From NCBI RefSeq assembly GCF_000022145.1, contig NC_011891.1, positions 2,492,001 to 2,556,000 on the forward strand: DNA of 64,000 nucleotides. Reading direction: 5' to 3'. Shown here piece by piece: positions 60,201 to 64,000 of this stretch (its first letter is position 1; the number at the start of each line of letters is the position of its first letter). The position numbers and the translations under genes were made by a program. This DNA comes from Anaeromyxobacter dehalogenans 2CP-1. GTDB taxonomy: Bacteria > Myxococcota > Myxococcia > Myxococcales > Anaeromyxobacteraceae. The notes under the pieces were generated by a model. That model was not told the DNA's origin, ran no database searches, and saw nothing but the letters and a program-made list of their open reading frames with translations.

Positions 60201-61136
60201 TCAGCCTCCTGCCGGCGCCGCCCGCGCCAGCTCCGCCTGGAGCGCCTTGCCCGGCAAGGTCCGCCCCACCAGCCGCTGCGCCAGCGCGCCGGCGGCCACC
60301 AGCTTCCGGAAGTCCACTCCGGTCTCGAGCCCCATCCCGTCGAGCATGTAGACGAGGTCCTCGGTGGCGAGGTTCCCGGAGGCGCCCGGCGCGTACGGGC
60401 AGCCGCCCAGGCCGCCGATCGACGCGTCGAACGTCGTGACGCCCTCCTCCAGGCCGGCCAGCACGTTCGCGAGCGCGGTGCCGCGGGTGTCGTGCATGTG
60501 CAGCGCGATCTGCTCCGGCCGGGCGCGCGCGCGCAGCAGCCCGAGGATGCGCCGGGTCTGGTTGGGCGTCCCCACGCCGATGGTGTCGCCGAGCGACACC
60601 TGGTGGCAGCCGAGCGCGAGCAGCCGCTCGACGATCTCGGCGGCGCGGCCCGGGTCGACCGGGCCCTCGTACGGACAGCCCCACACCGTGGAGACGTACC
60701 CGCGCACGCGGAGCCCGCGGGCGAGCGCCGCGGGCACGAGCGCCTCCAGCTCGCCCAGCGTCTCCGCCACCGTTCGGTTCAGGTTCTTGCGGTTGTGCGT
60801 CTCGGAGGCCGAGAGGAACACCGCGGCCTCCACCGGCGGATGTCCCTCTCCCGCCCGCGCCAGCGCGACGGCGAGCCGGTCCAGCCCCTTCGCGTTCGGC
60901 ACCAGCACCACGTACGAGGTCCCGTCCACCGCCGGGAGCGCCGCGGTCACCTCGGCGGCGTCGGCGAGCTGCGGGATCCAGCGCGGCGACACGAAGCTCG
61001 AGGCCTCGATGCGCCGCAGGCCCGCGGCCGCGAGCGCCCCGATGAGCGCCAGCTTGTCCGCGGTCGGGACGGTGCGCGCCTCGTTCTGGAGCCCGTCCCG
61101 CGGGCCGACCTCGTACACCGTCACCCGGTGGGCCAT
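60201..61136 (-). CDS. Hydroxymethylglutaryl-CoA lyase
   Basis: 311 residues. The TIM-barrel sequence includes [52 protein letters not shown] and the catalytic loop [17 protein letters not shown] with its Cys. It splits HMG-CoA into acetyl-CoA and acetoacetate, the final step of leucine breakdown. It is first gene of the operon. A -10 box (TAATAT) ends 7 nt before the ATG, so it is probably leaderless. Confidence 0.95.
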
Positions 61137-61171: not shown

Positions 61172-61265
61172 GGTGATCCCGCGTGGGTCCGCGCGGGGCG
61201 ATGACGGCGCCGGCGCCCCGGGTTAACTCCCCTCCCCGGACCCAACGACCCCACGAGAGGTGAAC

Positions 61266-61676
61266 ATGATCCGGTTCCTGCGTCTCACCGTGCTCGCCGC
61301 GGCGGCCCTCGCCGCCGGCGCCGGCGCCCGCGCCGAGGACGCGCCGTACCGCGAGGCCTCGGTGGACGAGGTGGCGAGGCTCCTCGGCACGCCGGGCGCG
61401 CGCGTCTTCGACGCGAACGGCCCGGAGACCTACGCGAAGGCCCACCTGCCCGGGGCCACGCTCGTCGCGTACCGCACGTACGAGGCCCGCGAGCTGCCGG
61501 CGGACAAGGACGCGCCGCTCGTCTTCTACTGCAAGAACACGCGTTGAAGCGCGAGCCACGAGGCCGCCCGGCGGGCGGCCAGCTTCGGGCACCGCAACGT
61601 GTACGTGATGCCGGCCGGCATCGACGGCTGGGTGGCCGCCGGCAGGCCGGTGGAGGAGGGACCGCCGGGGCGGTGA
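61266..61676 (+). CDS. Periplasmic rhodanese-like selenoprotein, Sec at in-frame TGA
   Basis: 136 residues if the TGA at 61545-61547 is read as selenocysteine (U94). A signal peptide (MIRFLRLTVLAAAALAAGAGARA) precedes a rhodanese domain: FDANGPETYAKAHLPGA, FYCKNTR-U-SASHEAARRAASFG, VYVMPAGIDGWVAAG, stop at 61674-61676. The TGA sits where relatives have the catalytic Cys (YC..T.C.ASH). Translation stopping there would lose the last third of the domain. A stem-loop at 61562-61580 fits a bacterial SECIS. Rhodanese moves sulfane sulfur to a nucleophile; Sec at the active site would make it a selenol enzyme. The alternative is a pseudogene. GAGAGGTGA precedes the ATG. It is convergent with thiC. 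Confidence 0.85.
61545..61580 (+). promoter_or_regulatory. In-frame UGA with bacterial SECIS-like stem-loop
   Basis: The UGA is followed by 14 nt and then a perfect 8-bp stem (GGCCGCCC, 61562-61569, with GGGCGGCC, 61573-61580) enclosing loop GGC. The loop begins 22 nt after the UGA and has G in its first two positions. Published bacterial SECIS models place the loop about 16-37 nt after UGA with a G there. The structure overlaps coding sequence, as in bacterial selenoprotein mRNAs. Confidence 0.75.
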
Positions 61677-61698
61677 AGGCCGAGGCCTCCGGGTGCGC

Positions 61699-64000
<2,302 letters not shown>

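What the first reader, a model, noticed from the sequence alone, without database searches (positions are those of the whole stretch)
61266..61676. Probable selenocysteine-containing rhodanese-like protein, easily misannotated as truncated
Seen: the gene has a signal peptide and starts a rhodanese domain, then an in-frame TGA at 61545-61547, and the same frame continues 42 further codons that complete the domain (SASHEAARRAAS, VYVMPAGIDGWVAAG) and end in a second TGA at 61676. Established knowledge: relatives have a conserved catalytic Cys exactly here (Y-C-x-N-T-x-C-x-A-S-H pattern), and predicted rhodanese-related selenoproteins are known from computational surveys. Inference: codon 94 is Sec. 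A standard gene finder would end the gene at the TGA and lose the active site. The exact replacement of Cys, with no frameshift and an intact downstream frame, argues against decay.
Basis: partly seen in the sequence, partly recalled or inferred. Interest (0 to 1): 0.92.

Follow-up and report, generated by a model that had tools for sequence, protein, structure and literature searches.

The report
Selenocysteine rhodanese hidden by a stop
A small exported bacterial sulfur-handling protein in an Anaeromyxobacter genome is almost certainly made with the rare amino acid selenocysteine at a UGA "stop" codon, so standard annotation would cut it short; it belongs to a family in which this selenocysteine pairs with the usual rhodanese cysteine and which is present in at least three bacterial phyla.

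Summary
An exported rhodanese-like protein (61266-61676, 136 codons) is interrupted only by an in-frame TGA (61545-61547, codon 94). The selenocysteine reading is strongly supported. The genome has selA, selB, selD (with its own TGA) and a UCA tRNA-Sec. In 36 distinct homologues, nearly all from Myxococcota, the same codon is TGA; in 107 others it is Cys (TGC/TGT); no TAA or TAG was seen there. All 27 TGA-bearing genomes at least 90% complete have selB, against 10 of 21 Cys-only genomes. A SECIS-like hairpin lies 15-33 nt after the TGA in Sec genes (94% of cells paired), but not beyond codon-usage expectation in Cys genes (59%). It recurs in Acidobacteriota and Binatota, with synonymous compensatory changes. 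Both sides of the TGA are under purifying selection.

The rhodanese Cys is C89, upstream of the TGA; Sec94 is the last residue of the active-site loop, giving C-x4-U (C-x4-C in Cys homologues). I infer that Sec94 is a redox/resolving partner of Cys89 in a periplasmic persulfide or disulfide reductase-transferase. Substrate and partner are unknown. Rhodanese selenoproteins are known; this free-standing CxxxxU form is not named in the 2026 review, though its "form 1" (UxxS) could be the same family.

The parts
61256..61263 (+). Ribosome-binding site (AGAGGTGA) before the ATG
   Evidence: Read from the sequence; supports the ATG at 61266 rather than the GTG at 61260 listed mechanically
61266..61676 (+). 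CDS of the predicted selenoprotein, 136 codons plus final TGA stop; rhodanese-like domain
   Evidence: Translation with TGA=U; PF00581 55 bits, cut-off 22.2; AlphaFold2 model pLDDT 91, Foldseek matches to rhodaneses E about 1e-7
61266..61334 (+). Predicted signal peptide (MIRFLRLTVLAAAALAAGAGARA|ED), so exported
   Evidence: Sequence inspection; relatives also begin with signal peptides or lipobox-like ends, e.g. L024 LGALAC, L016 ALGC. No signal-peptide program was run
61530..61532 (+). Codon of Cys89, the canonical rhodanese catalytic Cys (first residue of the active-site loop CKNTRU)
   Evidence: Invariant in A1 and A2; aligns with YgaP C63 (C63D mutant 5hbq listed)
61545..61547 (+). In-frame TGA read as selenocysteine 94, last residue of the six-residue active-site loop (CxxxxU)
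   Evidence: TGA in 36 distinct homologues, TGC/TGT in 107; no TAA/TAG found; selA, selB, selD, tRNA-Sec in the genome
61562..61580 (+). bSECIS-like hairpin: 7-bp stem (61562-61568 with 61574-61580), loop CGGCG 61569-61573; positions +15 to +33 after the TGA
   Evidence: 94% of stem cells paired in Sec genes against 59% in Cys homologues; 76% expected from synonymous recoding of the Sec genes, z 8.6; pair counts; recurs in other phyla
61674..61676 (+). Terminating TGA (true stop)
   Evidence: homologues end near here with TGA, TAG or TAA

Best explanation
The gene encodes a selenoprotein. UGA94 is decoded as selenocysteine by SelB and tRNA-Sec with the help of a hairpin just downstream in the coding sequence. 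The product is an exported single-domain rhodanese whose active-site loop holds two redox residues, the usual Cys89 and Sec94 (C-K-N-T-R-U). Inferred mechanism: Cys89 takes up a sulfur (or selenium, or another thiophile) as a persulfide-type adduct. Sec94, across the same loop, resolves it, releasing reduced sulfur or passing it on and leaving a Cys-Sec selenenylsulfide. That bond is then reset by periplasmic thiol electrons, plausibly from a DsbD/CcdA-type membrane reductase. Shown here: the reading frame, conservation, TGA/Cys exchange, SECIS hairpin, Sec machinery and the two-residue loop. Inferred: export, the role of Sec94, the electron donor. Unknown: the substrate. My confidence is about 0.96 that codon 94 is Sec and about 0.5 for the resolving-partner mechanism.
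For: Machinery in the own genome: selB 293 bits over a cut-off of 242, selA 509 bits joined, selD 381 bits and itself with one in-frame TGA, tRNA-Sec 76.7 bits with UCA anticodon. Homologues: position 89 is Cys throughout; position 94 is U in 36 and C in 107 distinct sequences, TGA or TGC/TGT and no other stop. The scan required Cys there, but searches did not. selB co-occurrence: 32 of 35 TGA genomes against 11 of 29 Cys-only (Fisher p 8e-6); among genomes at least 90% complete 27 of 27 against 10 of 21 (p 1.6e-5; tallied). Hairpin: Sec genes 94% paired, null 76% (sd 2%), Cys genes 59% with null 61%; 10 cells changed on both sides, shuffles 2.2 +/- 1.3, 0 of 500 as high. Out of sample, ten Sec genes of Acidobacteriota and Binatota have 87% of the same pairs; pair 18-30 is C:G, U:A or G:C, all made by synonymous third bases of two Ala codons. 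dN < dS on both sides of the TGA. Sec and Cys rows interleave in the tree: 8 changes, at least 2 forced. DsbD link: TsoB, the nearest selenoprotein family, is a rhodanese(UxxxxU)-DsbD fusion, and the DsbD half is a separate gene in this genome.
Against: No protein evidence. In the window alone the hairpin is not unusually stable against dinucleotide shuffles (z -1.49), and Rfam reports nothing. Three TGA-bearing genomes lack a selB match, but they are 61-82% complete. DsbD-like genes are near universal in the phylum, so they are no specific support. Neighbour genes do not point to a substrate.
Confidence: 0.88

Rival explanations
1. Codon 94 is Sec, but the protein is an ordinary periplasmic thiosulfate or polysulfide sulfurtransferase working through Cys89 alone; Sec94 only tunes the loop and does not form a bond with Cys89.
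For: Rhodanese fold and conserved catalytic Cys. Single-domain rhodaneses such as periplasmic PspE are active sulfurtransferases (title and abstract of PMC2593051).
Against: Position 94 is Cys or Sec in essentially all homologues, whereas the ordinary rhodanese loop has R/S/T there (YgaP). Repeated Cys/Sec exchange suggests a nucleophile or redox role.
Confidence: 0.25
2. Codon 94 is Sec and the protein is a reductase of oxyanions (arsenate, selenite, tellurite) built on the rhodanese/Cdc25-like fold, with Cys89 as nucleophile and Sec94 as resolving residue.
For: Two-residue redox loop on a fold shared with Cdc25/Acr2-type enzymes (established knowledge; 1t3k dual-specificity phosphatase is a weak sequence match). 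The host genus respires metals (own knowledge).
Against: No arsenic, selenite or tellurite gene is conserved next to it. The loop is six residues as in sulfurtransferases, not seven as in Cdc25/Acr2 (established knowledge).
Confidence: 0.15
3. The gene is decaying: TGA94 is a premature stop and the product is a 93-residue fragment or nothing.
For: A standard gene finder ends the frame at the TGA (ORF 61260-61547, 95 aa).
Against: Same TGA in 36 distinct homologues, and in further ones from other phyla, with intact downstream frames and dN < dS after it; no TAA or TAG; correlation with selB; selected hairpin.
Confidence: 0.02
4. UGA is read through by a near-cognate tRNA (Trp, Cys or Arg) rather than as Sec, giving a Cys- or Trp-containing protein.
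For: Readthrough of UGA is known in bacteria (own knowledge).
Against: Cys, not Trp or Arg, is the exchange partner at the codon. The hairpin is selected only in TGA genes, and selB co-occurs.
Confidence: 0.02

Closest known systems
TsoB (NF045694), rhodanese/DsbD fusion-like selenoprotein; 'form 5, UxxxxU' in PMC13188914
   Same: The best selenoprotein-family match of the members scanned. Same spacing of two redox residues in the rhodanese loop; Sec at the second place in both.
   Different: Here the first residue is Cys, not Sec, and there is no fused DsbD. Score 43 bits against a cut-off of 805; no genome of 193 in the phylum passes the cut-off.
Rhodanese-like selenoprotein 'form 1' (PF00581, UxxS, WP_010941598.1) from Zhang and Gladyshev 2005, listed in PMC13188914
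   Same: PF00581 domain and one Sec. Our U94-S-A-S97 would also be written UxxS.
   Different: Cannot be decided: that sequence and paper are not held. If its Sec is the loop-end residue it is the same family; if it replaces the catalytic Cys it is not.
Rhodanese_LYCAU (NF041203), 'form 3, CxU'
   Same: Rhodanese-related (seleno)protein with Cys and Sec in the loop region.
   Different: Spacing CxU, not CxxxxU; 35 bits against a cut-off of 115.
BH2092 of Bacillus halodurans (PDB 3nhv, 3o3w)
   Same: Rhodanese fold; among the top Foldseek matches; Cys-Cys version of the loop, YCWGPAC.
   Different: Cys in place of Sec; function unknown; only 24% identical over the structural alignment.
E. coli YgaP rhodanese domain and PspE/GlpE
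   Same: Single rhodanese domain with catalytic Cys aligned to C89.
   Different: YgaP has no Cys or Sec at the sixth loop position in the alignment shown; none is a selenoprotein.

Membership tests
Bacterial selenoprotein | In-frame UGA with the frame intact beyond it, conserved in relatives | tested here: met
Bacterial selenoprotein | Cys at the UGA position in homologues | tested here: met
   107 distinct Cys sequences, codon TGC or TGT; Cys relatives in genomes found without a Cys-requiring pattern
Bacterial selenoprotein | SECIS hairpin just downstream of UGA with a G in a small apical loop | tested here: met
   loops CGTGC, GGTCG, CGTGA, CGGCG and others each hold G within the first two bases
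Bacterial selenoprotein | SelA, SelB, SelD and tRNA-Sec in the same genome | tested here: met
Bacterial selenoprotein | Selenium actually present in the protein | not testable with these tools
   Needs mass spectrometry or 75Se labelling
Rhodanese superfamily (PF00581) | Domain match over the curated cut-off and rhodanese fold | tested here: met
   55.2 bits, cut-off 22.2; model pLDDT 91, PDB matches to rhodaneses
Rhodanese superfamily (PF00581) | Catalytic Cys at the first position of the active-site loop | tested here: met
   C89 invariant
Rhodanese superfamily (PF00581) | Sulfurtransferase activity | not testable with these tools
   Needs purified protein
TsoB (NF045694) | Whole-protein score over 805 bits, with fused DsbD-like part and UxxxxU | tested here: not met
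   43.3 bits, matched only in the rhodanese part; 136 residues; CxxxxU
Rhodanese_LYCAU (NF041203) | Score over 115 bits; CxU motif | tested here: not met
   35.2 bits; CxxxxU
PQQ_CXXCW (TIGR03865) | Score over 128 bits; CXXCW motif | tested here: not met
   48.5 bits; no CXXCW
Rhodanese-like selenoprotein form 1 (UxxS) | Sec followed by xxS in a PF00581 protein, same site as WP_010941598.1 | tested here: inconclusive
   U94-S-A-S97 fits the written motif, but the reference sequence could not be obtained

The most novel reading that the evidence does not exclude
A separate, so far unnamed selenoprotein family: free-standing exported rhodaneses with a Cys-x4-Sec active-site loop, spread over Myxococcota, Acidobacteriota and Binatota. 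The rhodanese Cys forms a persulfide that a selenocysteine in the same loop resolves, making the enzyme a periplasmic persulfide or polysulfide reductase rather than a plain sulfurtransferase.
Probability: 0.35. Interest if true: 0.65.

Novelty: new member of a known kind. Interest (0 to 1): 0.45.

Why it matters
It corrects a gene that standard pipelines would truncate. No curated NCBIfam model reaches its cut-off for it, so its relatives in many genomes are probably cut short too. It adds a selenoprotein that the 2006 list for A. dehalogenans (11 selenoproteins, no rhodanese) does not contain. The C-x4-C/U loop makes a clear, testable proposal: that some rhodaneses carry a second redox residue, and that lineages swap it between Cys and Sec. 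The pair of homologues, one Sec and one Cys, side by side in Binatota-type genomes is a natural comparison.

Tried and rejected
Accession CP001359 was not in the record collections. Rfam on 61400-61800: nothing. Single-sequence folding of the window hairpin was not significant; only the comparison across genes was. Neighbour analysis of 37 regions gave no conserved functional partner: in Anaeromyxobacter the flanks are an HMG-CoA-lyase-like gene and thiC, both on the other strand; some Myxococcaceae have a cytochrome c maturation cluster nearby, also on the other strand. Search for true TsoB in the phylum: none. Plasmid search: only ordinary rhodaneses. Attempts to reach the papers behind TsoB and the 2004 selenoproteome failed, and no route to the form 1 sequence was found. 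My first Fisher count for complete genomes (second line) used wrong numbers and is replaced. A first regular expression for stop types missed most rows and is replaced.

Full report
OBSERVATION. The reading frame at 61266-61676 is as described: 136 codons with one in-frame TGA at 61545-61547 and a final TGA at 61674-61676. Read through, the protein has an N-terminal signal-like segment and a PF00581 rhodanese domain over residues 32-124 (55.2 bits, cut-off 22.2). AlphaFold2 gives a confident model (pLDDT 91) that Foldseek matches to solved rhodaneses.

GENOME. The window lies in a single 5,029,329-base contig, which by size I take to be Anaeromyxobacter dehalogenans 2CP-1; its relative G002 (5,013,479 bases) has the size of strain 2CP-C. 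Both identifications rest on memory of genome sizes. The genome holds the whole Sec pathway: selB, selA, selD with an in-frame TGA of its own and a 99-base tRNA-Sec with UCA anticodon. None of these lies in the window.

CONSERVATION. A protein search of 60 related genomes finds the gene with one TGA in two near-identical species (93-94% identity) and in many diverged ones. In the alignment A1 the TGA column is Cys in relatives without TGA. A profile search of the phylum and a genome-collection scan extend this. After removing duplicates 143 sequences have Cys89 with either U94 (36) or C94 (107). A codon count gives TGA 36, TGC 91, TGT 11, no TAA or TAG. The scan required Cys at the position, so its 80 Cys rows are not independent evidence for Cys there; the rows are. 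dN is below dS before and after the TGA in ten pairs of Sec genes. On a quick tree the Sec/Cys label needs 8 changes, at least 2 forced by well-supported branches. Two further phyla hold Sec forms: Acidobacteriota (nine genomes) and Binatota.

CO-OCCURRENCE WITH SELB. Tallying: 32 of 35 TGA genomes have selB over the cut-off, and the three without are 61-82% complete; 11 of 29 Cys-only genomes have it (p 8e-6). For genomes at least 90% complete: 27 of 27 against 10 of 21 (p 1.6e-5). These p values ignore shared ancestry. The genome of locus L086, which carries both a Sec and a Cys copy, has selB.

SECIS. In the Sec genes a hairpin sits at a fixed distance, +15 to +33 after the UGA. Its seven pairs are formed in 94% of cells in Sec genes, against 76% (sd 2%) expected when the same codons are recoded synonymously; in Cys genes the figure is 59%, no more than their own null of 61%. 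The structure exceeds slid versions and shuffles. The stem was defined on the Myxococcota-centred set; the ten new Sec genes from Acidobacteriota and Binatota keep 87% of the pairs. Pair 18-30 is C:G in the window, U:A in several Myxococcaceae (L170, L175, L176) and G:C in Acidobacteriota (L264), each made by third bases of Ala codons, so the changes are silent in the protein. The window hairpin alone is not significant (z -1.49).

THE ACTIVE SITE. The alignment with YgaP places the known catalytic Cys63 on our Cys89. Sec94 is thus the last residue of the six-residue loop C-K-N-T-R-U. In Cys homologues it is the second Cys of C-x4-C, as also in BH2092 of Bacillus halodurans, which has a solved structure. 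Both residues are almost invariant.

MECHANISM. Two near-invariant redox residues in one loop, one of them exchanging between Cys and Sec, suggest a pair that forms and breaks a bond. I infer that Cys89 takes the sulfur and Sec94 resolves it. The exported location and the existence of TsoB, in which a UxxxxU rhodanese is fused to DsbD, suggest reduction by a DsbD-type conduit. A separate DsbD-like gene exists in this genome at C1:694577-695770, but such genes are near universal in the phylum. The substrate is unknown and neighbours do not help.

COMPARISON WITH THE KNOWN. The 2026 review lists five rhodanese selenoprotein forms: UxxS, UxxG, CxU, UxxG and UxxxxU. Ours fails the TsoB and LYCAU cut-offs. 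Forms 2 and 4 (UxxG) fit replacement of the catalytic Cys, a different site (inference). Form 1 (UxxS, a protein whose accession I take, from memory of numbering, to be from Geobacter) could be the same family, since our U94-S-A-S97 fits; I could not get that sequence. The 2006 survey lists 11 selenoproteins for A. dehalogenans without a rhodanese, and a 2016 survey counts a 'sulfurtransferase homologous to a rhodanese-like protein' with the figures 24 and 25 in its table, without naming this genus in the main text. I therefore file it as a new member of a known kind, with a real chance that it is a separate variant.

VERDICT. The Sec reading is as well supported as sequence alone allows. The gene is of moderate interest: a solid, probably misannotated selenoprotein with an unusual two-residue rhodanese loop, in a kind already known.

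Noticed in passing
L086 (about 5636 and 6216) and L253 (genome G323): Two Binatota-type genomes carry a Sec copy (TGA) and a Cys copy of this rhodanese side by side, about 0.5 kb apart; close relatives of each other in the tree for L086.
   Followed up: partly
L033, L034, L036, L179, L180 (genomes G003-G007, same genus): A second subfamily with loop YCRGGGU/YCRGLGU, also with TGA at the same codon and the same hairpin place; no such copy was found in the window's own genome.
   Followed up: partly
L237, L240, L235 (Myxococcaceae): The Sec rhodanese lies near genes that look like CcmF, CcmG/DsbE and CcmH (cytochrome c maturation) on the opposite strand; a possible hint at envelope thiol chemistry.
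   Followed up: partly
L057 (G000:C1:3923608-3924534): selD of the own genome contains an in-frame TGA, so SelD is itself probably a selenoprotein here.
   Followed up: no
window 61699-63339 (-) and about 60201-61136 (-): Flanking genes on the other strand look like thiC and an HMG-CoA-lyase-like gene (motif [13 protein letters not shown]); thiC is near the rhodanese in several Anaeromyxobacter relatives, probably incidental.
   Followed up: partly
L181 (G113): A more distant rhodanese, loop YCNGPTU, also has TGA and a GGUC-type hairpin, suggesting Sec at this place arose or spread more than once.
   Followed up: no
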